This document shows, piece after piece, positions 1 to 10,587 of a stretch of DNA of 10,587 bases; within the stretch, counting starts at the first letter, position 1, and the number at the start of each line of letters is the position of its first letter. The stretch spans positions 1 through 10,587 of the forward strand of contig CAMLHU010000050.1 in the NCBI GenBank assembly GCA_946479825.1, given 5' to 3'. This DNA comes from an uncultured Gemmatimonadota bacterium. Its GTDB lineage: Bacteria; Gemmatimonadota; Gemmatimonadetes; Gemmatimonadales; GWC2-71-9. The translations under genes and the position numbers were made by a program. Below the pieces are notes generated by a model. It did not search any database. It was not told where the DNA came from and was given only the letters and a program-made list of their open reading frames with translations.

Positions 1-45
1 AGCACCGTTCGCGCAACTCGGATTCCGTGCTGGACGGGTGCCTAA
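1..45 (+). CDS. C-terminal tail of an unidentified cassette protein (partial)
   Basis: The frame starting at base 1 is open for 14 codons, ending in ...CWTGA, and stops at TAA 43-45 inside the left R box of the first attC-like site. The two complete cassettes to the right end in the same way, which is the only reason for choosing this frame. The other two plus-strand frames are also open through this short stretch, so the choice is tentative. Too little protein is visible to name a family. Confidence 0.3.
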   Translation, partial: STVRATRIPCWTGA

Positions 46-180
46 CCAGCGCTTGTCGCTGACGGCGCTGAAGTGCCACGCCTCCGCCTTGCCCCGTCCC
101 CCGTGCGGCATGCTGCGAAAGCAATAACTTGACTTGACGGCGGGACGGGCCCGCCGCAGCTAAAGCGCCCACCGTTAGGC
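40..180 (+). repeat. attC-like recombination site 1
   Basis: The left R box GCCTAAC (40-46) and right R box GTTAGGC (174-180) are perfect reverse complements and match RYYYAAC/GTTRRRY. Inside them GCGCTT (49-54) pairs with AAGCGC (163-168), separated from the R boxes by 2 and 5 bases, like the unpaired central spacer of attC sites. More pairing lies further in (CCCCGTCCC near 93-101 against GGGACGGG near 142-149). At 141 bases it is at the long end of the known attC size range. Recombination would cut between G174 and T175. Confidence 0.7.
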
Positions 181-205
181 GGCGGCAGGCAGCGAGGACC
201 AATTG

Positions 206-715
206 ATGCGTCGCATGACCAGCTCCCTTCTTGGGCTACTCGTTCCCATTGCCCTTGTGGCGCAGACGCCAGACAGCACGGCGCCGCGCCCCGCCAGCGT
301 GACGAAGGGCCAGATCACCGTTATATGCAGGAACGGCGCGACCGCTGCCAAGCCAGTAGGCGTCGGATTGACCTTTGGCCGGGATCCCGTCACCGCCGCC
401 CGTCTGGTGCCACGGGCGATCAGCGCCGCTGGTTTTGAGCTCCTCTCGTCGATCCCCGCGACCTACAACACTCGCGCCCGCCTGACCTGGCCCGACACTA
501 CCGCGGCAGACTCGTTCCGTTTTTACGCCTATCCCGGAGTGGTCGCTACCCTCGTGCTTGGACGCACCCGCACGGACTCCATTGCCGTCATCGGGATGGT
601 GGAGGCTCTCTGCTCGTCGAATCCGGGAGCACCTGACTCAACCGTGGCGGTCGCGTTGAGGATCGCCGCCGCCCAATTGCAGCAATCGCTCGAGGCGCTT
701 CGGCCCAGACGCTAA
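206..715 (+). CDS. secreted protein of unknown function (integron cassette)
   Basis: This 169-residue protein has a classic signal peptide: MRRM, a hydrophobic stretch (about residues 8-18, LLGLLVPIALV) and a likely cut near AQ/TPDS, so it should be exported. The mature part has two cysteines (Cys41 and Cys136) that could form a disulfide, and an Ala/Leu/Gln-rich C-terminal helix. I do not recognise a family. The start is ATG 206, with GAGG at 194-197 as ribosome binding site; a TTG one codon earlier is less likely. The gene begins about 25 bases after attC site 1, and its stop TAA lies in the left R box of attC site 2, so it fills one cassette. Expression would depend on a promoter further upstream or within the preceding attC; none is clear. 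Confidence 0.72.
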   Translation: MRRMTSSLLGLLVPIALVAQTPDSTAPRPASVTKGQITVICRNGATAAKPVGVGLTFGRDPVTAARLVPRAISAAGFELLSSIPATYNTRARLTWPDTTAADSFRFYAYPGVVATLVLGRTRTDSIAVIGMVEALCSSNPGAPDSTVAVALRIAAAQLQQSLEALRPRR

Positions 716-858
716 CCCCTACCTGACCAGCGCCGGGAGCTGGCGGGCCTTCCGGGCCGGCGCTCCGTGGACAGAATGTTGGATCGGGAGGCCGCTGTGG
801 AACGTTCGTTGGTGATCACCCAGGCTTGCGCCCGCAGCTCACGCGCGGCTCGTTAGGC
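710..858 (+). repeat. attC-like recombination site 2
   Basis: The left box CGCTAAC (710-716) contains the stop codon of the preceding gene. The right box GTTAGGC (852-858) is a perfect GTTRRRY. The left box has two changes from the exact complement. Inside, GAGCTGGCGGGC (737-748) pairs with GCCCGCAGCTC (830-840) with one bulged G, as in the extrahelical bases of attC stems. At 149 bases it is slightly longer than usual. It aligns along most of its length with site 3 (shared blocks GGGCCGGCGCT, a GATCG-GAGGC-GC-GTGGA motif, and GCCCGCAGCTC). Confidence 0.62.
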
Positions 859-916
859 CGCGACGACCAGGCAGCTTACCTCTGCGCCACGTGTCCACGT
901 GGCTACTGCATTCCCA

Positions 917-1510
917 ATGACCCTTTGGCGGCGTCTTATCTCAGTGCTGGCCGGCTGCTGCCTGGCGCTCCTGCGCCTGGCAAGCCCGCTACTCAAGTCA
1001 TACGTTCGGCACACAACCCGACACCACCCCCTTCACCATGGGCTTCGGCTCGCCATTACTGTACCGGACAACGGTGTCGAGGCCGTGACCTGCGATCGCG
1101 TCGCCGCGGCTGCTAGCCTTCTCGCCGTTCATGCTCCAGTCCACCTTCGTTGGTTGCAACGAGCGATCGTAGTCATCTTCGTCTCGCCCCAGCGGGGAGG
1201 GGGGTGGGTCCAACTCGTTCCTGAGGCCGGCATCCTCCGGTTCACCCCGCTATTGGTATGGCAGGGCACCACTGAACAGGTGGCATTGGAACTTGTGGCC
1301 GCCGCGACCCGCTTCCGTTTTCATATGGCTGGCGTAAGGGACGAGGGACAGAGCAGGCTCCCGATCGCTCGACGAGCAATTCTCGAACGCATTTGGCTAG
1401 CTGAACGCCTCCAGATGGGCGAGTCCGCCATTACCGAATGGAAGGGGAGGCTTCTCACAGCCCCGGCCCGCCGTTCCTCCCTTACGACCACCCGGCACCT
1501 TGACGCCTAA
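917..1510 (+). CDS. membrane-anchored cassette protein, possible HExxH-family relative without the motif
   Basis: The 197-residue product has an N-terminal hydrophobic segment (about residues 8-28, after MTLWRR) suited to a signal anchor. The rest looks soluble, probably outside the cytoplasm. Its layout (a helix near 62-88, an IFV-P-RGG segment near 87-95, then ELVAAATRFRF at 125-135 and LPIARRAILERIWLAERL at 148-165) recalls uncharacterised bacterial proteins that I remember carrying LVHEATHAR, a HExxH-type motif, followed by an arginine-rich I-x-LR helix. Here the HEATH positions read AAATR, so no metal site is expected. This relationship is from memory and unverified. The start is uncertain: ATG 917 or GTG 899, neither with a good ribosome binding site. 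The stop TAA lies in the left R box of attC site 3, so the gene fills its cassette. Confidence 0.6.
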   Translation: MTLWRRLISVLAGCCLALLRLASPLLKSYVRHTTRHHPLHHGLRLAITVPDNGVEAVTCDRVAAAASLLAVHAPVHLRWLQRAIVVIFVSPQRGGGWVQLVPEAGILRFTPLLVWQGTTEQVALELVAAATRFRFHMAGVRDEGQSRLPIARRAILERIWLAERLQMGESAITEWKGRLLTAPARRSSLTTTRHLDA

Positions 1511-1642
1511 TCTGGGCATGAAGCTGCCGGGCCGCTCGGGCCGGCGCTCGGTGGAACGACGGATGGATCGTGAGGCTGCCGTGGACTGTTGGACCGTGAT
1601 CGCTCGGGCTTGGGCCCGCAGCTCAAGCGCGTCCCGTTGACC
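1505..1642 (+). repeat. attC-like recombination site 3 (degenerate R boxes)
   Basis: The left box GCCTAAT (1505-1511) and right box GTTGACC (1636-1642) each differ at one position from RYYYAAC/GTTRRRY. AAGCTGCCGGGC (1521-1532) pairs with GCCCGCAGCTC (1614-1624) with one bulge and one mismatch, the same inner stem as in site 2. The length is 138 bases. Its similarity to site 2 supports common origin, but the decayed R boxes suggest it recombines poorly or not at all. Confidence 0.55.
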
Positions 1643-1659: not shown

Positions 1660-2181
1660 GTGGACTTCGTTTCCCACGGGCTCTGGGGTGGCATCGCGCT
1701 CGGCCGAAGTAGTCGCCGAAGCTTCCGGCTGGCATTCCTGTTCGGGATCGCCCCCGATCTCTGCTCCTTCGGGATCGTGGTGGTCGGCGGCCTCATCGCG
1801 CACGGCGCCGAGTTCACCCGCGGGATCGGACATCCGCCCGACCCTTCCCAGATCCCGGCCTACGTCCACCACCTTTACGACGTCACCCACAGCCTAGTGG
1901 ACTTCGCCCTGGCGTTCGGGCTGGTGTGGCTCGTCCGGAAGCGGCCCCTGTGGGAAATGGGCGCCTGGGGCCTGCACGTGCTCCTCGACATATTCACCCA
2001 CACCACGGCCTTCTTCCCTACCCCGTTCCTCTGGCCGCTCGCGGATGTTCGAGTTGACGGGCGGGCGTGGTCGGAACCGGACATCTTCTTCCCCAATGTG
2101 ACCCTGTTAGTCGTGCTTTACGCCGCGTTCATGTGGAAGCACAAAGGGTGGCCCAAGGGCGCCCAAGCACCAGAGAACTGA
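1660..2181 (+). CDS. YdjM-type membrane-bound metal-dependent hydrolase
   Basis: This 173-residue integral membrane protein carries the histidine/aspartate pattern of the YdjM (LexA-binding, inner-membrane putative hydrolase) family: His6 in SHGLWGG, Pro32-Asp33 in GIAPDL, His77-Ser78 in THSLVDF, and His106, Asp110, His114 in HVLLDIFTH. Several hydrophobic segments (about 25-48, 78-92, 103-112, 146-158) place these polar residues near the membrane. The substrate of this family is not established. The start is GTG 1660, with GAGG at 1647-1650 nine bases upstream; it begins 18 bases after attC site 3, a spacing typical of cassette genes. No attC follows the stop at 2179-2181, so it is either the first gene beyond the array or a cassette fixed in place by loss of its site. 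Confidence 0.78.
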   Translation: MDFVSHGLWGGIALGRSSRRSFRLAFLFGIAPDLCSFGIVVVGGLIAHGAEFTRGIGHPPDPSQIPAYVHHLYDVTHSLVDFALAFGLVWLVRKRPLWEMGAWGLHVLLDIFTHTTAFFPTPFLWPLADVRVDGRAWSEPDIFFPNVTLLVVLYAAFMWKHKGWPKGAQAPEN

Positions 2182-2365
2182 GGCGCGGATTCATCCTACT
2201 CGCATGGAGCGCAGCGCGCGGGGCCCGACCCCTGCACCCCCGGCCGGCTCACGGCGTACGCCCCTCGCCCCCGGCCATCTTGTCACTTCCCGCCGCAGGC
2301 CGCACCTTAGCCCCGATCCGTTCGCCGGCATTCCCACCGTCTCACTCGACCGGGGAGGCAAGGCC

Positions 2366-2788
2366 ATGAACGACGCACCGAGGTGGTTCCGTCCGACGGC
2401 CATCGTCGCGTTGCTGTGGAATCTGCTGGGCTGTGCGGCGTACCTGGCCGACGTGAGCATCTCCCCGGAACGACTGAGCAGGATGACGGCGGCCCAGCAG
2501 GCCCTCTATGCCGCCCGCCCCGCCTGGGCCGTGGCCGCGACCGCGACGGCCGTCTGGTTCGGCGCCGCGGGCTCGCTCGGCCTGGCGCTCCGCCGGAAGT
2601 GGGCGACGTGGCTCCTCGTCCTTTCCCTGGTCGGTGTCGTGGCGCAGGATCTCTGGCTGTTCGTCCTGAGCGGAGCCGCGCGTCAGGCCGGCGCCTCGGC
2701 GTTCGTCGCGCAAGGCCTGGTCCTGGTCGTCGCCATCGGCCTGGTCGCCCTGGCGCGGCGAGCGACAGCCCGAGCCTGGCTCGCCTGA
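2366..2788 (+). CDS. four-helix membrane protein (often annotated 'sugar transporter')
   Basis: The 140-residue product has four hydrophobic helices (about 11-29, 52-74, 80-101, 112-130) and a short polar loop ISPERLSRMTAAQQALY between the first two. I recognise the WFRP...LWNLLGCAAYLADV...QQALYAARPAW signature from small proteins that databases commonly label sugar transporter, but a transport role is not demonstrated for such proteins and the DoxX-like topology is equally consistent. The start is ATG 2366, with GGGGAGG at 2352-2358; longer readings from 2204 have proline/arginine-rich extensions unlike protein. It is the first gene of the plus-strand run. The 184 bases before it show no clear promoter or other feature. 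Confidence 0.72.
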   Translation: MNDAPRWFRPTAIVALLWNLLGCAAYLADVSISPERLSRMTAAQQALYAARPAWAVAATATAVWFGAAGSLGLALRRKWATWLLVLSLVGVVAQDLWLFVLSGAARQAGASAFVAQGLVLVVAIGLVALARRATARAWLA

Positions 2789-2963
2789 GCGTCCGCCGCA
2801 CCCGCCGATGCCCCGCCAGCGGATCCGGCGCGCACATTAGGGCGCTCGGTGTTCACAGACGGCGGGGGCGACCTACCGCTCACCCTCCGGACGTTTGGCC
2901 GACAGGCGCGACACCCGCCTCGGGCAACGCGCCGGCTCGCGACCCCCGTGGACGAGGACCCCG

Positions 2964-3425
2964 ATGACCAAGGTCACGCCGTTCCTGATGTTCAACGACC
3001 AGCTCGAGGCGGCCATGGCGTTCTACGCCGCCACCTTCCCAAATTCGGAGATCAGGAACGTCGCCCGCACTGGCGGCGACGGCCCGATCACGTCGGCCGA
3101 GTTCGTCGTCGGCGGCCAGGTCTTCATGGGCTACAACGGTGGTTCGTACTTCACGTTCTCCGAAGGGTTCTCGCTCTTCGTCGATTGCGAGGACCAGGCC
3201 GAGGTCGACCGGTATTGGGACCGGCTCGTCGAGGCCGGCGCCACGCCGATGCAGTGCGGCTGGATCAAGGACCCGTTCGGCCTCACCTGGCAGATCGTGC
3301 CGCGACGGTTCATGCTGCTCATCCGCGACCCCGACCCCGCCAAGGTCCAGGCGGTGATGAAGGCGATGCTGACGATGGTCAAGCTCGACGTTGCCGCACT
3401 CGAGCGCGCTTACAATGAGGCGTAG
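2964..3425 (+). CDS. VOC-family protein, PhnB-like
   Basis: This 153-residue protein belongs to the vicinal-oxygen-chelate (glyoxalase/bleomycin-resistance) superfamily, in the PhnB-like group once annotated as 3-demethylubiquinone methyltransferase. It opens with KVTPFLMFNDQLEAAMAFY, the first beta-alpha unit. SAEFVVGGQVFMGYNGG (44-60) is the central strand pair, and WIKDPFGLTWQIVP (100-113) is the family's closing motif. The C-terminal tail (about 120-153) is a helix common in this group. Such proteins are cytoplasmic dimers; the substrate cannot be told. The start is ATG 2964, with GAGG at 2954-2957. The previous gene is 175 bases away and the following YCII gene 48 bases, so it could head its own sub-operon. 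Confidence 0.85.
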   Translation: MTKVTPFLMFNDQLEAAMAFYAATFPNSEIRNVARTGGDGPITSAEFVVGGQVFMGYNGGSYFTFSEGFSLFVDCEDQAEVDRYWDRLVEAGATPMQCGWIKDPFGLTWQIVPRRFMLLIRDPDPAKVQAVMKAMLTMVKLDVAALERAYNEA

Positions 3426-3473
3426 CGGGATCCCCGTCGCGTGCCGGCGCGCACCTCCCTCCGGGCCCTGCCG

Positions 3474-3815
3474 ATGCCCCGCTACCTGATCTCATTCGAC
3501 GACGGCGCGATGGGCCACATCGCCGAGTCGGAACTGCCTGCCGTGGGCGAAGCGGCGCACGCGGTGCTCCGGGAGGCCAAGGCCGCCGGAGTCTGGATCT
3601 TCGGCGCCGGTGTCCCGCGCCAACGACCGAGCGTCGTCGCGACCGACGGGACGGTCTCCGACGGCCCCGCCCCGGAGACCGGGCCGGCCATCGGCGGGTT
3701 CGCGATCGTCGAAGTCCCCTCGCGCGCGGAGGCGCTCCGATGGGCCGCGCGCATCGCCCGGGCCTGCCGCTGCGCCCAGGAGGTCCGCGAGATCGGCTTC
3801 GACCCGGAGTCCTGA
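3474..3815 (+). CDS. YCII (DGPF) domain protein
   Basis: This 113-residue protein has the complete YCII-related fold of the DGPF type: MPRYLISFDD at the start, VATDGTVSDGP (55-65), IGGFAIVEVPSRAEAL (73-88), and ACRCAQEVREI (97-107) near the end. The family is ferredoxin-like in fold. In other bacteria DGPF proteins are often encoded next to ECF sigma factors; none is present here. His29 may correspond to the conserved YciI histidine, but an enzymatic role is not known. The start ATG 3474 is chosen because it gives the usual family N-terminus; the ribosome binding site is weak, so translation may be coupled to the VOC gene 48 bases upstream. Confidence 0.82.
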   Translation: MPRYLISFDDGAMGHIAESELPAVGEAAHAVLREAKAAGVWIFGAGVPRQRPSVVATDGTVSDGPAPETGPAIGGFAIVEVPSRAEALRWAARIARACRCAQEVREIGFDPES

Positions 3816-3826
3816 CGCCCCACGCA

Positions 3827-3849
3827 GCCGGTCAGCGCCGACGACCGGC
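3827..3849 (+). other. inverted repeat between YCII and small membrane protein genes
   Basis: GCCGGTC (3827-3833) and GACCGGC (3843-3849) form a perfect 7-base stem with a 9-base loop, 12 bases after the YCII stop and before the next gene's ribosome binding site. No T-run follows, so it is not a standard terminator. It may attenuate or stabilise the transcript, or be chance in GC-rich DNA. Confidence 0.3.
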
Positions 3850-3873
3850 CCTTCCCCGTTCCAGGACATTGCC

Positions 3874-4041
3874 ATGGACCGCGGCTACGCCGTAGGTTGG
3901 GGTACCCTCGCCCTCATCAACGCCGGCCTGGCCCAGACCAAGCGCCGCAGCGCGCTGGCCTGGTTCTTCATCTCCCTTCTATGCGGGCCGATCGCGACCT
4001 TCCTGATCGTCGTGCTCGGCCCCGGCCCGGGACCCTCATGA
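3874..4041 (+). CDS. small membrane protein, 55 residues
   Basis: The product has a weakly hydrophobic first segment (about 5-19, YAVGWGTLALINAGL), a basic loop QTKRRS (21-26), and a strong membrane segment (28-49) with a central CGPIATFLIVVL. A basic loop followed by an aromatic helix containing GP-A is a pattern I associate with tiny uncharacterised bacterial membrane proteins; I cannot assign a function. The start ATG 3874 has AGGA at 3863-3866. Its stop TGA overlaps the ATG of the following reductase in ATGA (4038-4041), so the two are probably translationally coupled. The tail GPGPGPS may simply be the price of that overlap. Confidence 0.65.
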   Translation: MDRGYAVGWGTLALINAGLAQTKRRSALAWFFISLLCGPIATFLIVVLGPGPGPS

Positions 4042-4667
4042 GCAAGGTCTTCGTCAACATCGCCCTCACCCTCGACGGCTACCTGGCCCCCGAAGGGATG
4101 CGGATGGACGACCCGGGGTACCTGAACTGGGGCGCCAAGTGGGGGGCGCTGATGGGCTGGCTCCTCTCCCAGCAGTACTTCCGCGAGAACCTCAAGTTCG
4201 GCTCCGGCGGCGAGACCGGCCCGGTCAACGACCTGGTCCGCCACACGATGGAGCGCACCGGCGCCAACATCATGGGCAAGCGGATGTTCGACCAGGGCGA
4301 GGTCTCCTGGCCCGACGAGGCCCCGTTCCACACCCCGGTGTACGTGCTGACCCACACGAAGCGCGGACCCTGGGCGCGCCCCGGCGGCACGACCTTCCAC
4401 TTCGTTAACGACGGCCCCGCCCGCGCCCTCGAACTGGCCAGGGCCTCGGCGGGCGGCCGCGACATCCGCATCTCGGGCGGCGCCGACGTGATCCAGCAGT
4501 ACCTCAACCTCGGCGCGGTGGACGAGCTCGAGATCGCCCTGGCCCCCGTGTTCTTCGGCGGCGGCCGGCGACTCTTCGAGCACCTGGCCGAACCCGGGCC
4601 GCAGTTCCGCATCGACAAGGTGCTGGACGGCCCCGCCGCCACCCACCTGCGCTACGTGCGCCGGTGA
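4038..4667 (+). CDS. dihydrofolate reductase-family (RibD C-terminal domain) protein
   Basis: This 209-residue protein has the RibD_C/DHFR-like fold: FVNIALTLDGYLA (5-17) for the first strand and substrate loop, NIMGKRMFD (77-85), VYVLTHTKR (101-109), ISGGADVIQQYLNLGAVDELE (145-165) with the NADPH-binding GG, and APVFFGGGRRLFE (169-181). By family it is a probable NAD(P)H-dependent reductase of an unknown small molecule, not a housekeeping folate enzyme. It is longer than simple members through an insert at about 18-65 (MRMDDPGYLNWG...ENLKFGSGGE). The start ATG 4038 overlaps the stop of the 55-residue membrane protein. A second, shorter paralog of the same family lies at 9151-9696. Confidence 0.88.
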   Translation: MSKVFVNIALTLDGYLAPEGMRMDDPGYLNWGAKWGALMGWLLSQQYFRENLKFGSGGETGPVNDLVRHTMERTGANIMGKRMFDQGEVSWPDEAPFHTPVYVLTHTKRGPWARPGGTTFHFVNDGPARALELARASAGGRDIRISGGADVIQQYLNLGAVDELEIALAPVFFGGGRRLFEHLAEPGPQFRIDKVLDGPAATHLRYVRR

Positions 4668-4725
4668 GGATGGCCCGACGGGCCGCTGACCGGATCCCTG
4701 ACCTGCTGACGCTGCGAGGCCTGTC

Positions 4726-5163
4726 GTGACACTCAAGCGGATGGACAACGTCGGCATCGTCGTCGAATCCCTGGACGAGGCCATCCCGTTCTTCGCCGAG
4801 CTCGGCCTGCGACTCGAAGGGCGGGCCACGATCGAGGGGGAGTGGGCCGGGCGGGTCACGGGCGTGAAAGGCCAGCGGGTCGAGATCGCGAGGATGCGCA
4901 CGCCCGACGGTCACAGCCGGCTCGAGCTCTCGCGCTTCCTCGCTCCGCCCATCGCGGCCGACCACCGGAACGCGCCGGTCAATGCCCTGGGCTACCTGCG
5001 CGCGATGTTCACCGTCGAGGACCTCGACGACACCCTTGCCCGCCTCCGCCCCCTCGGCGCACGGCTCGTCGGCGAGGTGGTGCAGTACGAGGACGTCTAT
5101 CGGCTCTGCTACATCCGCGGCCCCGAAGGAGTGCTCATCGGCCTCGCCGAGGAGCTCAAGTAG
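4726..5163 (+). CDS. VOC-family protein (glyoxalase/bleomycin-resistance type)
   Basis: This is a 145-residue VOC protein with two beta-alpha-beta-beta-beta modules. MDNVGIVVESLDEAIPFFAE (6-25) opens the first and HSRLELSRF (63-71) closes it; LRAMFTVEDLDDTLARL (91-107) opens the second and RGPEGVLIGLAEELK (131-145) closes it. Glu67 and Glu142 sit where many members bind metal. The usual first ligand histidine in HVGIVV is replaced by Asn8 in DNVGIVV, so metal coordination may be altered. The start is GTG 4726, with GAGG at 4716-4719 seven bases away; ATG 4741 is an alternative but loses the first strand lead-in. It follows the reductase by 58 bases in the same direction. Its substrate is unknown. 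Confidence 0.85.
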   Translation: MTLKRMDNVGIVVESLDEAIPFFAELGLRLEGRATIEGEWAGRVTGVKGQRVEIARMRTPDGHSRLELSRFLAPPIAADHRNAPVNALGYLRAMFTVEDLDDTLARLRPLGARLVGEVVQYEDVYRLCYIRGPEGVLIGLAEELK

Positions 5164-5203
5164 CTACCGGTCGGGCCGACGATGGCCGTGACCGCAACTG
5201 GCG

Positions 5204-6154
5204 ATGGGAGCGATCGACCGGTCGAGCCGCGTGCTGAAACGTCTCCGCCAGATCCTCGTGGGCACGCTGGTGCTCGTGGTCGGAGTGCCGGCGCTCGCCG
5301 TGGTATCCGTCGTCGCCTACACCGGCCACCTGGACCGCACCAATGGGCGCCTGCGCTCCTCCGGCGTCGAGCGGCGGTTCCTGCTGTTCGTGCCGCGCAC
5401 CTATGATCCCGCAAAGCCCACACCGCTCGTCATCAGCCTGCACGGCGCCGGCGCCTGGCCGGCGCAGCAGATGCACCTGACGCACTGGAACGCGCTGGCG
5501 GAGGAACAGGGATTCATCGTGGTGTATCCGGCCGCCCGGGGCCGCATCTGGCAGGTGCAGCGCCCCGGCGCCGATCCGTCGGAAGACGTGCAGTTCATCG
5601 CCGATCTCATCGACACCCTGGAGCACGCGTACCACATCGACCCGCACCGGATCTACGTCAACGGCTTTTCCCTGGGCGGCGCGATGGCGTTCGCGCTGAG
5701 CTGCCGGCTCTCCGGCCGCCTCGCCGCGATCGGCACGGTCTCCGCCGCCCAGGCCCTTCCCTGGTCCTGGTGCGGGGACCAGCATCCGATGCCGCTTATC
5801 AACTTCCACGGCACGGCCGACCTGGTGCCCTACGCCGGGGGCCGGTCGCCCGACCCGTTCAATCCCGTGATCTTTCCGGCCGTCCGGCAGTGGGCCGCCG
5901 ACTGGGCCCGGCGCAACGGGTGCCGCGACGCGCCGCGCGACTCCGCCGCCGCACCTGACGTCACCGTCACGCGCTACCGCGACTGTGCGGACGATGCCAC
6001 GGTGGCGCTGTACTCGATCTCGGGGGGCGGCCACGCCTGGCCCGGCGGCAAGCCCCTGCCGCGCTGGCCCTTCGGGCGCACGACCCGGTCGCTCGACGCG
6101 ACCCGGACCATGTGGGAGTTCTTCGAAGCCCACCCGCAGCCGACGTCCGACTAG
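5204..6154 (+). CDS. membrane-anchored alpha/beta hydrolase, PHB depolymerase/feruloyl esterase (LpqC) type
   Basis: The 316-residue product begins with a basic stretch and one hydrophobic helix (about 17-38), so it is anchored to or exported through the inner membrane. The hydrolase domain follows: ISLHGAGAW (77-85) as oxyanion region, VNGFSLGGAMA (152-162) with nucleophile Ser156 in G-x-S-x-G, FHGTADLVPY (201-210) with acid Asp206, and SGGGHAWPGG (273-282) with catalytic His277. This order and the HAWPGG motif are typical of the COG3509 polyhydroxybutyrate depolymerase/feruloyl esterase group. The likely substrate is an ester outside the cytoplasm; which one cannot be told. Start ATG 5204 lacks a clear ribosome binding site; GTG 5231 would still keep the helix. 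Confidence 0.86.
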   Translation: MGAIDRSSRVLKRLRQILVGTLVLVVGVPALAVVSVVAYTGHLDRTNGRLRSSGVERRFLLFVPRTYDPAKPTPLVISLHGAGAWPAQQMHLTHWNALAEEQGFIVVYPAARGRIWQVQRPGADPSEDVQFIADLIDTLEHAYHIDPHRIYVNGFSLGGAMAFALSCRLSGRLAAIGTVSAAQALPWSWCGDQHPMPLINFHGTADLVPYAGGRSPDPFNPVIFPAVRQWAADWARRNGCRDAPRDSAAAPDVTVTRYRDCADDATVALYSISGGGHAWPGGKPLPRWPFGRTTRSLDATRTMWEFFEAHPQPTSD

Positions 6155-6166
6155 GGCCGCCGACCG

Positions 6167-6853
6167 ATGCTGCCAGACCTGGCCACAAGGGAAGACTTCG
6201 ACGCCGACGCGGCCCCCTACTACGCGCGCCGTGACGGCGTCGGCTTCGTCCTGATGGCGGGCGTGGGCGCCGTGCTGCTCGTCGTGTTCGGGACGGACTG
6301 GCAGGCCACCGGAGCCGCCTTCTGGAGCCAGATGGGCCAGGCCCTTATCGTCGGGCTCTGCCTGGGGCTTCCCATCGGCCTCCTCGGCACGCTGGCCGAG
6401 CGGCACGAGCGCAAGGTCAAGGTCTGGCGCCGGCTCGATCGGATCTTCCGATGGGACCCGGCGCTCGTCCCTCCGGCCCCGCCCGGCGCGACCCATCGGT
6501 TGGTGTGCGCGGCCATCGTCTCGCTTCGGAAGGCCGCCGGGGGCTCGCTGTACGTCTGTCGCGACGGGCTGGTGTTCCAGCCGCATTATCCCCGCCGGCG
6601 CTGGCCGTGGCGCAGGGTTCAGCCGCCGCAGGCCCTCCGGATCGGCCCGCCTCGCACCATCGTCCTCGAGACCGGTCTGTTGCGTCGCGGGCACTGGCTT
6701 CTGCGCCCGCTGGATGAGCCGCGCAGGCAAGTGGTCCTGTGCACCTGGCAGGGCGGCAGCGTCGTGCTGTCCGTACCTCGCCTCGACCTGGTGCTGCCAC
6801 GGCTGCAACGGTGCGTCGATACGCTCAGGGCGACGGGGTCGGCGGCCGGCTGA
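6167..6853 (+). CDS. membrane protein of unknown function, possible bacterial PH-like domain
   Basis: The 228-residue product has an acidic N-terminus, two membrane helices (about 25-42 and 56-76), then a basic cytoplasmic segment (ERHERKVKVWRRLDRI, 79-94). In the C-terminal half, GGSLYVCRDGLVFQPHYPRR (125-144), WPWRRV (146-151) and repeated short strands resemble the beta-sandwich of bacterial PH or GRAM-like domains, in which a WPW-x-x-V turn is common. This is a shape judgement, not a sequence match, and I do not recognise the family. The gene starts 12 bases after the hydrolase stop, so the two are probably co-transcribed. It is the last gene of the plus-strand run, facing the 320-base repeats. 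Confidence 0.6.
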   Translation: MLPDLATREDFDADAAPYYARRDGVGFVLMAGVGAVLLVVFGTDWQATGAAFWSQMGQALIVGLCLGLPIGLLGTLAERHERKVKVWRRLDRIFRWDPALVPPAPPGATHRLVCAAIVSLRKAAGGSLYVCRDGLVFQPHYPRRRWPWRRVQPPQALRIGPPRTIVLETGLLRRGHWLLRPLDEPRRQVVLCTWQGGSVVLSVPRLDLVLPRLQRCVDTLRATGSAAG

Positions 6854-6899
6854 CGGGCGCCGGCACGGCCCCGGCCCCGGTGGTCCCAGCTGTCCCGCT

Positions 6900-7123
6900 C
6901 CGGCCACGATCTTCGCGGTCGGCGAAAGCCCTTCAGGGCGCCACGCCGAGCGGCGGCTTCAGCCGCCGGTCGCGCGAGGCGATCAGGGTGGAGCAACAGA
7001 GGGGCGGCCTTCCAGGCCGCCCTCAGGATTGGGAAATTGACGGCGCCCGTTTGCCGGCGGCTAAAGCCGCCGCTCGGCATGGCGCCGTAAACGGCTTGGC
7101 GGGACGGCGGGAATTGCGGGCCG
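6900..7123. repeat. 69-base imperfect inverted repeat inside the tandem unit
   Basis: Bases 6900-6968 read in reverse complement align without gaps to 7055-7123, with roughly three quarters matching. The centre holds a strong hairpin (7002-7022: GGGCGGCCT, loop TCC, AGGCCGCCC). The same arrangement recurs 320 bases later at 7220-7288 and 7375-7443. Small palindromes inside each arm keep their pairing despite changes: GCCCTTCAGGGC at 6928-6939 and GCCGTAAACGGC at 7084-7095. Confidence 0.75.
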
Positions 7124-7153
7124 ACAAGAGCCGGTGCCGCACGGAACCGTTCA

Positions 7154-7220
7154 AGCCGACCACATCAAACGCAGTTCTCCGTGCTCCTCCGTGTCCTCCG
7201 TGGTCCCAGCTGTCCCGCTC
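7154..7220 (+). repeat. dispersed CTCCGTG element, copy 1 (spans the unit 1/unit 2 junction)
   Basis: It runs from GCCGACCACATC through three CTCCGTG heptamers at 9-10 base spacing (CTCCGTGCTC, CTCCGTGTC, CTCCGTGG) to GGTCCCAGCTGTCCC. The same element recurs at 7474-7540 and 9913-9978 on the plus strand and at 9737-9800 on the minus strand; its right end alone is at 6879-6900. Confidence 0.8.
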
Positions 7221-7473
7221 CGGCCGCGATCCTCGCCGTCGGCGAAAGCCCTTCAGGGCGCCACGCCGAGCGGCGGCTTCAGCCGCCGGTCGCGCGAGGC
7301 GATCAGGGTGGAGCAACAGAGGGGCGGCCTTCCAGGCCGCCCTCAGGATTGGGAAATTGACGGCGCCCGTTTGCCGGCGGCTAAAGCCGCCGCTCGGCAT
7401 GGCGCCGTAAACGGCTTGGCGGGACGGCGGGAATTGCGGGCCGACAAGAGCCGGTGCCGCACGGAACCGTTCA

Positions 7474-7540
7474 AGCCGACCACATCAAACGCAGTTCTCC
7501 GTGCTCCTCCGTGTCCTCCGTGGTCCCAGCTGTCCCGCTC
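7474..7540 (+). repeat. dispersed CTCCGTG element, copy 2
   Basis: This is identical to the copy at 7154-7220, being its 320-base tandem counterpart across the unit 2/unit 3 junction. Confidence 0.8.
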
Positions 7541-7618
7541 CGGCCGCGATCCTCGCCGTCGGCGAAAGCCCTTCAGGGCGCCACGCCGAGCGGCGGCTTC
7601 AGCCGCCGGGCCGCCCCT

Positions 7619-8101
7619 TCACCGTCCCGCATCGGCCTGGAGCGTGCCGAGGAGCGCCTCGAGCTGGTCGAACGATTCGCCGGCGCCGCTGGTGCTCCCG
7701 ATGCCTTCGTCGAGCGCTTCCTTGGATGGATAGACGTCGCTCATTCGGACCAGCGTCTTGCCCCCCTGCTCTTCGAACGTGACGGTAGAGACCGCGCCGT
7801 CGCCGCTCCCCTCCTCGTTGGTCCAGACCAGGCGCTTGTTCGGCGTCACCTCGAGGTACTTGCCGAAGAACTCCATCGTCCCCGACTCGCCGTGGGCGAA
7901 CACCAGCTTGTACCCGCCCCCGGTGCGCGCGTCCATCTCGCAGGAGAGCAGCTTGATGGGGAACGACTTCGGCACCCACCACTGCTTGAACAGATCCGCC
8001 GTGGTCCACGCCTTGAACACCAGGTGGGCCGGCGCGTTGACGGTCCGGGTGACGACGACCTCGCGATCGGACGTCCGCTCTACCTTGGTCTCGTTCTTCA
8101 T
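7619..8101 (-). CDS. AHSA1/SRPBCC-domain protein
   Basis: This 160-residue protein of the START-like AHSA1 (activator of Hsp90 ATPase homolog) group has VVVTRTVNAPAHLVFKAWT (15-33) as first strand and helix, LFKQWWVPKSFP (37-48), DARTGGGYKLVF (57-68) and EFFGKYLEVTPNKRLVWTNEE (77-97), ending in a long helix (136-156) that roofs the hydrophobic cavity. The cavity binds an unknown small ligand; bacterial members are not known to act on Hsp90. Its ATG overlaps the stop of the ArsR-type gene in ATGA (8101-8098), so the two are translationally coupled, the usual arrangement of this pair. The gene ends next to the 320-base repeat array, which may serve as its transcript end. Confidence 0.9.
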   Translation of the reverse strand: MKNETKVERTSDREVVVTRTVNAPAHLVFKAWTTADLFKQWWVPKSFPIKLLSCEMDARTGGGYKLVFAHGESGTMEFFGKYLEVTPNKRLVWTNEEGSGDGAVSTVTFEEQGGKTLVRMSDVYPSKEALDEGIGSTSGAGESFDQLEALLGTLQADAGR

Positions 8102-8478
8102 CGGGACTCCTCACTCTCCGTGGTCCTGCGTGTGTTGGTGTGTTCCTGCCGCTGCAGATCCTCGACCACCTGGTCCAGCGCCTCGAAGCGCGCTTCCCAG
8201 AGCTGCCGGTACCGCTCAAGCCAGGCCATCTCATCCTCCAGTCGCCGGGGGCCGAGTCGGCAGGTCCGCACCCGCCCGACCTTTTCCGTGGTGACGAGCC
8301 CCGCCCGTTCCAGCACGCCGACGTGCTTTTTCATCCCGGTCAGGGTCATCCGGAACTGCCCGGCCAGGTCCGTGATCGAGGCGTCGGCGCGGCCGAGCCG
8401 CTCGAGCACGCCGCGGCGCGTGGCGTCCGACAGCGCGGCGAACGAGGCATCCAGGCGGGCCCTGTTAAACTGAACCAT
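8098..8478 (-). CDS. ArsR-type winged-helix transcriptional regulator
   Basis: This 126-residue regulator has ALSDATRRGVLERL (15-28) opening the winged helix, a helix-turn-helix at about 33-60 (SITDLAGQFRMTLTGMKKHVGVLERAGLV is the core region), and the wing TTEKVGRVRTCRLG (63-76). The C-terminal helix (81-110) is rich in W and E and probably forms the dimer. It lacks an evident metal-binding Cys pair, as in the group paired with AHSA1 proteins, which may sense the partner's ligand. Start ATG 8478 is chosen because MVQFN is the usual beginning of this group and because a promoter and palindrome are centred on it; upstream codons are promoter DNA. The tail RQEHTNTRRTTESEESR looks disordered. 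Confidence 0.9.
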   Translation of the reverse strand: MVQFNRARLDASFAALSDATRRGVLERLGRADASITDLAGQFRMTLTGMKKHVGVLERAGLVTTEKVGRVRTCRLGPRRLEDEMAWLERYRQLWEARFEALDQVVEDLQRQEHTNTRRTTESEESR

Positions 8479-8514
8479 ACGGTTCAGTATAGCGGTCACC
8501 CCGGCGACGCGCAA
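8469..8514 (-). promoter_or_regulatory. leaderless promoter with palindromic operator of the ArsR/AHSA1 operon
   Basis: On the minus strand TTGCGC (8514-8509), a 17-base spacer, and TATACT (8491-8486) form a good sigma-70-type promoter. Seven bases separate the -10 box from the ATG at 8478, so transcription should start at or within a base of the start codon; no ribosome binding site is present. The palindrome ACTGAACC-atac-GGTTCAGT (8469-8488) overlaps both the -10 end and the start codon, an ideal site for autorepression by the ArsR dimer. Confidence 0.7.
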
Positions 8515-8609
8515 GGGGACGGGGTGCGGCGCCGTTGGCCCATAGAAGGAGGCGGCCGGGCCGCTTAACTTCGGACCCTGGCCCCCTCCCCCGTCGCCCC
8601 GGAGCCCGA

Positions 8610-9080
8610 ATGCCCCGCTCGCCTCATCCCGACCACCCCGCTACGAGCGCTACCGGCGCCCTCGCGTGCCTGGTCGCCCTCGCGGCGCTCGGCACGGCCT
8701 GCACCCCACCGGCCCGGCAGGTGGCGATCATCGGCCAGGACTACGCGTTCCAGGCCCCGGCCACGCTCCCCGCGGGTCCGGCGACGATCACATTCGAGAA
8801 CCACGGCGCGGTGGCCCACGAGCTCTCGATCGCCCGGCTTCGGCCCGGCATCACGATGGACTCGGCGCTCGCCGGAGTCCGCGCCGGGGCGACCCCCGAT
8901 TCGTTCATTGACGGCACGGTCGGCATCCTCGTCGCCCGCCCCGGGCAGCCCAGCCTCGGCGCCCTCCACGTGGACCTCGCGGCCGGACGGACCTATGCCC
9001 TGGTGTGTCAGTTCCAGGACGCGCCAGACCAGCCTCCGCACATGGCCAAGGGCATGATCGGCAGCATCCGGGTGGAGTGA
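8610..9080 (+). CDS. cupredoxin-like exported protein, probable lipoprotein
   Basis: The 156-residue product has a hydrophobic export segment (about 16-29) ending in ALGTAC-TPP, with Cys31 as possible lipid anchor; the lipobox is imperfect because position -3 is Gly. The mature domain resembles small blue-copper proteins: a beta strand VAIIGQDYAFQAP (38-50), TITFENHGAVAHELSIARL (59-77) with His70, and ALVCQFQDAPDQPPHMAKGM (130-149) with Cys133, His144 and Met149. His-Cys-His-Met is a type 1 copper set, and H-x4-M matches plastocyanin/azurin spacing, although the Cys-to-His distance is longer. Start ATG 8610 has GGAG at 8601-8604. Copper binding and any electron-transfer role are inference. 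It is divergent from the ArsR operon, with 131 bases between. Confidence 0.72.
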   Translation: MPRSPHPDHPATSATGALACLVALAALGTACTPPARQVAIIGQDYAFQAPATLPAGPATITFENHGAVAHELSIARLRPGITMDSALAGVRAGATPDSFIDGTVGILVARPGQPSLGALHVDLAAGRTYALVCQFQDAPDQPPHMAKGMIGSIRVE

Positions 9081-9138
9081 TCCGCCGCGCCCGACGACAG
9101 CGACCCACCACCTGGTCTCGTGACGAGGGGCCCCGGCC

Positions 9139-9144
9139 GAGGAG
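9139..9144 (+). promoter_or_regulatory. ribosome binding site supporting a CTG start at 9151
   Basis: GAGGAG lies six bases before CTG 9151. No ATG, GTG or TTG occurs in that frame between the stop TGA at 9121-9123 and the ATG at 9229, which would cut off the first strand of the protein. Confidence 0.6.
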
Positions 9145-9150
9145 ACCACC

Positions 9151-9696
9151 CTGCGCCCGCTCCGTTATTCCATCAACCTCACCCTCGACGGCTGCGCCGA
9201 CCACCGCGCCATCATCCCCGACGAGGAGATGCACCAGCACGCGACCGGGAACATCGCGCGCGCCGACGCCCTGCTCTTCGGGCGGGTCACCTACCAGATG
9301 ATGGAATCGGCGTGGCGGACGGGAGCGCCGGCGGACTGGCGCCTGCCGTGGATGGAACCCTTTGCCGAGACCATCGACGCCAAGAAGAAGTACGTGGTCT
9401 CGAGCACGCTCGAACGGGTGGACTGGAACGCAGAGCTCCTGCGCGGCGACCTCAAGGCCGCCGTCCTGGCCCTCAAGCAGGAACCGGGCTACGGCCTCGC
9501 CACCGGCGGGCTCACCCTCCCCCGCGCCCTCGCCGAACTCGGCCTGATCGACGAGTACGAGTTCATCGTCCATCCTCGACTGGCCGGCCACGGCCCCACG
9601 CTCTTTGCCGGGCTCCCCAGGGAACTGGACCTCACGCTGGTGGACCGCCGGGAATTCCGCTCCGGCGCGGTGGTGCTGCGGTACGCGCCGAAGTAA
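9151..9696 (+). CDS. dihydrofolate reductase-family (RibD C-terminal domain) protein with CTG start
   Basis: This 181-residue protein has the RibD_C/DHFR-like fold: RPLRYSINLTLDGC (2-15), DEEMHQH (24-30), ALLFGRVTYQMMES (40-53), KKYVVSSTLERVDW (79-92), ATGGLTLPRALAELGLIDEY (117-136) with the cofactor-binding GG, and HPRLAGHGPTLFAGL (141-155). By family it is a probable NAD(P)H-dependent reductase of unknown substrate. The start is unusual: the conserved first strand and TLDG loop are encoded upstream of the first ATG (9229), and the only suitable codon is CTG 9151, preceded by GAGGAG. It follows the cupredoxin gene by 70 bases. It is only distantly similar to the reductase at 4038-4667, so a recent duplication is unlikely. 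Confidence 0.85.
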   Translation: MRPLRYSINLTLDGCADHRAIIPDEEMHQHATGNIARADALLFGRVTYQMMESAWRTGAPADWRLPWMEPFAETIDAKKKYVVSSTLERVDWNAELLRGDLKAAVLALKQEPGYGLATGGLTLPRALAELGLIDEYEFIVHPRLAGHGPTLFAGLPRELDLTLVDRREFRSGAVVLRYAPK

Positions 9697-9736
9697 TGGA
9701 GCGGGTCGTTGGACGCTGGAAGCATCGCGATCGATC

Positions 9737-9800
9737 GGGGACAGCTGGGACCACGGAGCGCACGGAGCAACACGGAGAACGGCGTGTGATGTGGTCGGCC
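9737..9800 (-). repeat. dispersed CTCCGTG element, copy 3 (inverted)
   Basis: Read on the plus strand it begins GGGGACAGCTGGGACCACGG, followed by CACGGAG repeats and TGATGTGGTCGGCC: the reverse complement of the element at 7154-7220, with small indels among the heptamers. Confidence 0.75.
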
Positions 9801-9912
9801 AGATCGGCTCCCGGCGCGTACCATCGAGCCCCCAGGGACGGCGCCGCCGCCGAACATCGTGTCTGCAGGGGACCGCACGAACCACCATGGATACGAAGTC
9901 GGAGCCTGTCCG

Positions 9913-9978
9913 GCCGACCACACTGGGCAGCGGTGCTCCGTGCTCCTCCGTGTCCTCCGTGGTCCCAGCCGTCCCCAT
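9913..9978 (+). repeat. dispersed CTCCGTG element, copy 4
   Basis: It runs from GCCGACCACACT through three CTCCGTG heptamers to GGTCCCAGCCGTCCCC. It has the same order as the copies at 7154 and 7474, with more differences on the left side, and faces the inverted copy at 9737-9800. Confidence 0.75.
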
Positions 9979-10066
9979 CCGGGCGAGATCCCCGCTGCCG
10001 AACGCCAAAGCCGCCCGCCGGCAGGGCACCTTGAAGCACCTGGACCGTCCAACGAGGATCGACTCC

Positions 10067-10585
10067 ATGCGCCGCCTTCCCGCCTTCCTGCTCGCCGCCC
10101 TCCTGCTGGCCGCCCCCGCCCGGGCCGCGGCGCAGCTGCCGCCGGACTCGCTCTTCAATCGGCTCGTCGGCCACTGGGTGCTCCGCGGGACGATCGCCGG
10201 CCAGCGGACGACCCACGACGTCACCTTCAGCTGGATGCTGGGCCGCGAATACGTCCAGATGCACGAGGTCTCGCGGGAGCGCCAGGCCGACGGAAAGCCG
10301 GCGTACGAGGCGATGGTCTTCTTTGGCCGCGATCCGCACACCGGCGAGTACGCCTGCCTCTGGCTCGACAACACTGCCGCATCGGCCTTCGACCCGGCGG
10401 GCACCGGCCGGGGACACGTGGCAGGCGACTCGATCGAGTTCCTGTTCCACTACACCCCGACGACCGGATTCCACACGACGTTCGTCTACGACCGGACGCG
10501 CGACGCGTGGCAGTGGCGTATGGACAACGACAGCGCCGGGGTGCGGCAGCCGTTCGCCCGGGTGGAACTCACGCGCACGAAGTGA
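10067..10585 (+). CDS. secreted DUF1579-like beta-barrel protein
   Basis: This 172-residue protein has a clear signal peptide (MRRLPAFLLAALLLAAPARA, 1-20, cut near AAAQ/LPPDS), so it is exported. The mature part starts with LFNRLVGHWVLRGTIAG (29-45), the G-x-W opening shared by lipocalin-like and DUF1579-type domains, followed by alternating strands (DVTFSWMLGREYVQMHEV 51-68, AYEAMVFFGRDPHTGEYACLW 79-99, SIEFLFHY 122-129, FHTTFVYDR 135-143, AWQWRM 147-152). This suggests a small beta barrel that binds a hydrophobic ligand; the ligand is unknown. ATG 10067 has GAGG at 10054-10057; longer readings from 9605 would run through the inverted-repeat element and lose the signal peptide. The gene ends two bases before the window does. 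Confidence 0.76.
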   Translation: MRRLPAFLLAALLLAAPARAAAQLPPDSLFNRLVGHWVLRGTIAGQRTTHDVTFSWMLGREYVQMHEVSRERQADGKPAYEAMVFFGRDPHTGEYACLWLDNTAASAFDPAGTGRGHVAGDSIEFLFHYTPTTGFHTTFVYDRTRDAWQWRMDNDSAGVRQPFARVELTRTK

Positions 10586-10587
10586 CC

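What the first reader, a model, noticed from the sequence alone, without database searches (positions are those of the whole stretch)
1..1642. Cassette array with three attC-like sites in a probable environmental chromosomal integron
Seen: three sites with R boxes (GCCTAAC/GTTAGGC at 40 and 174; CGCTAAC/GTTAGGC at 710 and 852; GCCTAAT/GTTGACC at 1505 and 1636), inner stems that pair with bulges, lengths of 141, 149 and 138, and gene stop codons inside each left R box. Known: this is how integron cassettes are built. Inferred: the integrase lies left of base 1 and the genes were captured. Sites 2 and 3 are alike in sequence while their genes are unrelated, as in chromosomal integrons.
Basis: partly seen in the sequence, partly recalled or inferred. 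Interest (0 to 1): 0.75.

Follow-up and report, generated by a model that had tools for sequence, protein, structure and literature searches.

The report
Tail of an integron cassette array
The left end of this stretch is best read as the end of an integron gene-cassette array, a chain of small captured genes each closed by a foldable recombination site; it is a real but ordinary example that reaches one gene further than first thought.

Summary
The three sites are there, and the stretch is best read as the distal end of an integron cassette array. A covariance model (R2) built from 30 attC sites of 8 intI-bearing records, none from the window, ranks the three sites as its top three of 17 hits in the window, all on the + strand: site 1 is clear (32.2 bits), site 2 borderline (16.2), site 3 matched by its inner arms only (11.2). 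An earlier, narrower model (R1) found none of them convincingly, and sites 2 and 3 would not beat chance alone. They rest on 101/138 identity to each other, a shared box register, and likeness to an attC beside an intI in another genome. Correction: the left box of site 2 is 721-727, not 710-716, so the site is 138 nt. Extension: gene 1660-2181 is probably a fourth cassette gene; its nearest relative lies between attC sites on a contig with intI, and the DNA similarity begins at the cassette junction. No integrase or attI was seen and no genome is held, so complete integron versus orphan cluster (CALIN), and chromosomal versus mobile, stay open. A new member of a known kind.

The parts
1..45 (+). 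last codons of a cassette gene cut by the window's edge; stop TAA 43-45 in the left box of site 1
   Evidence: frame read
40..180 (+). attC site 1, 141 nt (R'' 40-46, R' 174-180)
   Evidence: R2 32.2 bits, E 4e-7; bottom strand -40.1 kcal/mol, z -3.1
206..715 (+). cassette gene, 169 aa, orphan; hydrophobic N-terminus like a signal peptide (my reading, no call)
   Evidence: ORF; 5 homologs found; no Pfam, PHROG or PADLOC family, NCBIfam one match below cut-off
721..858 (+). attC site 2, 138 nt (R'' 721-727 instead of 710-716; R' 852-858)
   Evidence: R2 16.2 bits, E 0.0095, but 2 control hits this high in 35 kb; 101 of 138 identical to site 3
917..1510 (+). cassette gene, 197 aa, orphan (ATG 917 chosen by homologs; the longest frame starts at GTG 899)
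   Evidence: ORF; 6 homologs found; no family in four libraries
1505..1642 (+). attC site 3, 138 nt, degenerate (R'' GCCTAAT 1505-1511, R' GTTGACC 1636-1642)
   Evidence: R2 arms only, 1519-1625, 11.2 bits, E 0.22; identity to site 2
1660..2181 (+). probable fourth cassette gene, 173 aa, no recognisable attC after it
   Evidence: nearest relative (73%, L001) lies between attC hits on a contig with intI; similarity starts at 1635, one base before the GTT of site 3; leader 17 of 24
2182..10587 (.). DNA after the array: ordinary small-enzyme genes and an ArsR/AHSA1 pair, no attC
   Evidence: Pfam; no R2 hit above 9.3 bits; third-position GC 0.878-0.967 in ten genes against 0.747, 0.672, 0.833 in the three cassette genes

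Best explanation
Bases 1-2181 are the distal end of an integron cassette array: the end of one cassette, two whole cassettes, and a last cassette gene without a recognisable attC, followed by host DNA. By the established integron mechanism the bottom strand of each site folds into a hairpin (R''/R' and L''/L' arms, extra base on one arm) and an integron integrase cuts at the conserved GTT, which excises or inserts the gene with its site. Shown here by computation: boxes, register, bulge, model hits, likeness to attC sites beside intI, a cassette shared with another integron. Inferred: an integrase in the host now or once, and that these sites still recombine; site 3 may be weak.
For: R2, without window sequence, puts the three sites first, second and third of 17 hits, all on the + strand. 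R2 pairs covary in its training sites (92.2% of cells paired; 18 of 22 pairs changed on both sides; six slid controls 22.9-41.6%). The same GCTG[N]CGG/CCGCAGC core with the extra base in the Gemmatirosa integron (83 minus-strand sites by R1; intI), in G041 and in an attC about 1.2 kb from intI in G167. Sites 2 and 3 alike, genes unrelated. Relative of gene 1660-2181 is a cassette in a Gallionellaceae integron with a shared left junction. Third-position GC step after the array.
Against: R1 failed on the window. R2 was built from the class of attC that resembles the window, after I had seen the window (19 of 49 sites dropped). Sites 2 and 3 do not beat the filters-off control by score nor shuffles by free folding. 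Site 3 lacks good R boxes. The blastn matches to G167 are weak one by one (best E 0.004, others 0.67 to 8.2). No integrase or attI seen. IntegronFinder's or HattCI's own models could not be run.
Confidence: 0.9

Rival explanations
1. Orphan attC cluster (CALIN): the same kind of array, but with no integrase near it, left by decay or off-target insertion. It differs from the best explanation only in what lies left of base 1.
For: Only three sites, one of them degenerate, and no integrase in the window. CALIN are as common as complete integrons in RefSeq genomes (2961 against 2760; PMC9024848, passage).
Against: The array is cut by the window's left edge, so absence of an integrase is not established.
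Confidence: 0.4
2. Array ends at 1642 and gene 1660-2181 is a resident host gene that merely follows it.
For: Most relatives show no attC: of 80 loci only L001 has R2 hits with E up to 0.01; sub-threshold hits near the gene in L034 (R2, E 1.7, other strand) and L019 (R1, E 1.9). No attC follows the gene here.
Against: The nearest relative lies between two attC hits (24.7 and 41.3 bits) in an array with intI on the contig; similarity starts one base before the GTT of site 3; leader 17 of 24 against 12 of 27 just before it, though 36 of 66 and 76 of 143 further back; third-position GC 0.833 is below all ten downstream genes.
Confidence: 0.15
3. Sites 2 and 3 are copies of a dispersed 138-bp repeat or small mobile element, not attC.
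For: 73% identity over 138 nt; free folding not better than shuffles; other repeats exist in the window.
Against: Same box register and extra base as site 1 and as attC sites beside intI; each sits directly after a gene's stop and before the next gene; no copy elsewhere in the window, and only short partial matches in the 1.9 Mb of loci then held.
Confidence: 0.04

Closest known systems
Integron of Gemmatirosa kalamazoonensis KBS708 plasmid 1 (NZ_CP007129), cited as one of the largest plasmid-borne integrons in the IntegronFinder 2.0 paper (PMC9024848, passages read)
   Same: attC core GCTG[N]CGG/CCGCAGC with the extra base, 11 nt from the left box; cassettes end to end on one strand; probably the same phylum as the window's host (tentative)
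   Different: 83 sites by R1, mostly about 97 nt, against 3 of 138-141 nt; intI present
   Same: attC of 130 nt with like boxes, including GCTGcCGGGCC as in site 3; intI about 1.2 kb away
   Different: loop sequences differ; second attC is 99 nt
Gallionellaceae UBA2239 integron (L001, L106)
   Same: carries the relative of gene 1660-2181 as a cassette
   Different: attC sites shorter (58-93 nt among the 13 best)
CALIN (attC clusters lacking an integrase; PMC8618304 and PMC9024848, passages)
   Same: few attC sites, no integrase in the stretch held
   Different: absence of an integrase is not established here

Membership tests
Integron cassette array | attC with R''/R' and the conserved GTT at the cleavage point (PMC5371416, passages) | tested here: met
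   GTT in all three R' boxes; R boxes full in site 1, partial in sites 2 and 3
Integron cassette array | L''/L' arms with extrahelical base | tested here: met
   in all three sites at the same place
Integron cassette array | covariance-model hit | tested here: inconclusive
   R2: site 1 met, site 2 borderline, site 3 not significant (control); R1: none; published models not available
Integron cassette array | bottom strand folds better than chance | tested here: inconclusive
   site 1 yes; sites 2 and 3 no
Integron cassette array | two or more attC within 4 kb on one strand, one gene each (4 kb rule: PMC8352920, methods section) | tested here: met
   three sites within 1.64 kb, genes end at or just before each left box
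Integron cassette array | cassette found in an independent integron at the same junction | tested here: met
   gene 1660-2181 against L001; only this one of the cassettes
Complete integron | intI and attI next to the array | not testable with these tools
   array runs off the left edge; no genome held
CALIN | no integrase near the cluster | not testable with these tools
   same reason
Sedentary chromosomal integron | more than about 10 attC (PMC9024848, passage), alike within the array (recalled), on a chromosome | tested here: inconclusive
   three sites visible; sites 2 and 3 are 73% identical, site 1 differs; replicon unknown

The most novel reading that the evidence does not exclude
The gene of 1660-2181 is a cassette that moved between integrons of distant bacteria (a Gallionellaceae genome and a probably Gemmatimonadota host) and has settled at the array's end after losing its attC: a frozen step from mobile cassette to resident gene, in a family otherwise mostly found outside cassettes.
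Probability: 0.4. Interest if true: 0.45.

Novelty: new member of a known kind. Interest (0 to 1): 0.3.

Why it matters
It adds one environmental cassette array with two orphan gene families and one gene family seen both in and outside cassettes. Integrons are already listed for Gemmatimonadota (PMC8618304, passage) and about two thirds of metagenomic integron genes are of unknown function (PMC7370490, passages), so neither is a surprise. The cassette shared with a common left junction is the useful part: it makes movement of one gene between integrons of unrelated hosts testable.

Tried and rejected
Models: R1 (51 Gemmatirosa sites) was too narrow and found no window site convincingly. I then aligned 49 sites and dropped 19 before building R2: 15 of L146, L147, L148, L149, L151, L154 and L156, three of L106 and one of L139, because the left arm lay in another register or aligned poorly. 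This was after I had seen the window sites, so R2 leans towards their class; its pairing was given by hand. My notebook's last entry says 9 source records; the count is 8.

Not counted: L002 (71%) seemed to share the leader of gene 1660-2181, but 965 of 5000 random stretches score as high and no attC lies near it. G007 has intI and a relative of that gene on one contig (84,244 bases), but R2 found no attC in L007. Patterns from sites 2 and 3 gave 0 and 3 viral contigs; the one R2 hit there lies elsewhere. No plasmid similarity for 181-1660, no viral relative of 203-712, no Rfam match at gathering thresholds; six sub-threshold Rfam matches in 1-2300 are to unrelated families. Structure models: 206-712 has pLDDT 63.5, so its Foldseek hits are not used; 917-1507 has pLDDT 73.9, best Foldseek hits HExxH-domain and other metallopeptidase-like chains but none at E 0.001, and no HExxH in the sequence: a lead only. 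Paper searches: integron + Gemmatimonadetes + attC + gene cassette gave 0 papers, integron + Gemmatimonadota 19 (listing of 12 seen).

Full report
WHAT IS THERE. Each site has a left and a right R box and, inside them, two arms that pair with one extra base on the 5' arm at the same place: GCTGaCGGCG/CGCCGCAGC (site 1), GAGCTGgCGGGC/GCCCGCAGCTC (site 2), AGCTGcCGGGCC/GGCCCGCAGCT (site 3). Sites 1 and 3 have 11 nt between left box and GCTG. In site 2 this register points to ACCTGAC 721-727; so do its ungapped match to site 3 and the model hit. Site 2 is therefore 721-858, 138 nt like site 3, and the stop at 713-715 lies 5 nt before it. Sites 2 and 3 agree at 101 of 138 positions; their genes are unrelated.

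CHANCE AND FOLDING. In a motif-and-arm scan site 1 scores 18; 9 candidates in 2.49 Mb of control strand reach that, and the controls include one locus with a real array. Site 3 scores 14, not remarkable alone; site 2 is missed because its left box lacks AA. Free folding of the bottom strand is better than shuffles for site 1 (-40.1 kcal/mol, z -3.1; top strand -34.9, z -2.9) but not for sites 2 and 3 (z +0.8 and -0.7).

AN INDEPENDENT MODEL. Rfam gave no match at gathering thresholds. A first model, R1, from 51 attC sites of the Gemmatirosa plasmid 1 integron, failed on the window: 22 hits up to E 10, the best E 2.1, and at site 1 only a part with another left box. Its training sites are 40-45 nt shorter. 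I then took attC sites from records with intI over the TIGR02249 cut-off, aligned 49, dropped 19, and built R2 from 30 sites of 8 records. The named pairs hold in 92.2% of cells, 18 of 22 pairs show a change on both sides, and the six slid controls reach 22.9-41.6%. On the window with filters off R2 gives 17 hits up to E 10: site 1 (40-180, 32.2 bits, E 4e-7), site 2 (721-858, 16.2, E 0.0095), the arms of site 3 (1519-1625, 11.2, E 0.22), then 9.3 bits and less. Over 83 loci (1.3 Mb, default filters) only L001 and L101, both from replicons with an integron array, score above 15.6. With filters off, 35 kb of Gemmatirosa DNA gives 2 hits at or above 16.2 and 9 at or above 11.2, best 19.9. So site 1 stands on its own; sites 2 and 3 do not by score alone.

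THE SAME BOXES BESIDE INTEGRASES. The core GCTG[N]CGG/CCGCAGC with the extra base is that of the Gemmatirosa array (83 minus-strand sites with E at most 1.6e-5 by R1 in three fetched stretches, most of its training set among them; intI 856836-857774) and of three sites in G041. A further likeness is in G167: blastn pieces of sites 1, 2 and 3 fall in one place near intI, weak one by one (E 0.004 to 8.2); R2 calls that place an attC of 130 nt (993-1122, 34.4 bits), about 1.2 kb from intI at 2342-3286, with a second attC at 225-323. G167 was not used to build R2.

A FOURTH CASSETTE GENE. Gene 1660-2181 starts 17 nt after site 3. Its nearest relative (73%, Gallionellaceae, L001) lies between R2 hits at 9915-9984 (24.7 bits) and 10696-10762 (41.3 bits), neither used in R2; R1 saw both too (21.0 and 29.7 bits). 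The same contig (61,173 bases) carries intI (G001:C58), and its fetched 20 kb hold 13 minus-strand hits with E below 1e-4, four of them training sites. DNA similarity between window and L001 begins at 1635, one base before the GTT of site 3. From GTT to the start codon 17 of 24 columns agree; just before it 12 of 27, and over longer stretches before it 36 of 66 and 76 of 143. Of 6000 GTT-anchored control stretches 2 score as high, and none of 48 leaders of other homologs. So the gene was probably captured at this junction in both genomes. No attC follows it in the window. Of the 80 loci with relatives, only L001 has R2 hits with E up to 0.01.

GENES AND BORDER. The two whole cassettes encode orphans: 5 and 6 homologs found in a database of 5.8 billion proteins and no family accepted in Pfam, NCBIfam, PHROGs or PADLOC. 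Third-position GC is 0.747, 0.672 and 0.833 in the three cassette genes, against 0.878-0.967 in ten genes downstream, which puts the array's end between 2181 and 2366. Downstream are small-enzyme genes and an ArsR/AHSA1 pair.

HOST. No genome is held. The gene at 9151-9696 has its best hit in the plasmid collection on Gemmatirosa plasmid 1 (71%), and AHSA1, ArsR and RibD_C genes keep order and strands there, at 33%, 46% and 73% identity. Against this, the ArsR gene's best plasmid-collection hits are rhizobial (76%). Gemmatimonadota is likely, not shown.

HOW IT WORKS. By established knowledge (PMC5371416, passages read) attC sites recombine as folded bottom strands; only three bases at the cleavage point are conserved; lengths run from 57 to 141 bp, mostly through the loop; and the outer four bases of R' need not pair in an array. 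That fits site 3, whose GTT is kept while the rest of R' matches its left box poorly, and sites of 138-141 nt at the long end of the range. That an integrase acts on these sites is inferred.

VERDICT. A genuine, ordinary piece of a known kind: the tail of a cassette array, probably one gene longer than reported, with one left box corrected. Complete integron or CALIN, chromosomal or mobile, cannot be told from this window.

Noticed in passing
window 6875-7609; 9721-9816; 9930-10000: A 300-nt block is repeated in tandem at 320-nt spacing (98%), with a third partial copy, palindromic inner parts, an inverted partner at 9721-9816 and a partial copy at 9930-10000.
   Followed up: no
window 917-1507: The model of this orphan cassette protein has metallopeptidase-like (zincin) best matches, none at E 0.001, yet the sequence has no HExxH.
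   Followed up: partly
window 2366-9696: Run of small-enzyme genes: 3-dmu-9_3-mt, YCII, RibD_C twice, glyoxalase, PHB-type esterase, AHSA1 with an ArsR-type regulator; AHSA1-ArsR-RibD_C order also on Gemmatirosa plasmid 1, about 39 kb from its intI.
   Followed up: partly
L100, L104, L105 (NZ_CP007129 810-857 kb): In the Gemmatirosa integron the intI and its array lie on the same strand with the array after the 3' end of intI; two more attC hits lie about 24 kb on the other side of intI (L101).
   Followed up: no
phylum of G002: 60 of 199 genomes searched carry intI over the family cut-off; several of the fetched contigs end within about 3 kb of intI.
   Followed up: no
L001 about 10534-10583: A short GGCTAAC...GTTAGGC unit stands directly after the end of the relative of gene 1660-2181, before the R2 hit at 10696 (sequence printed).
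   Followed up: no
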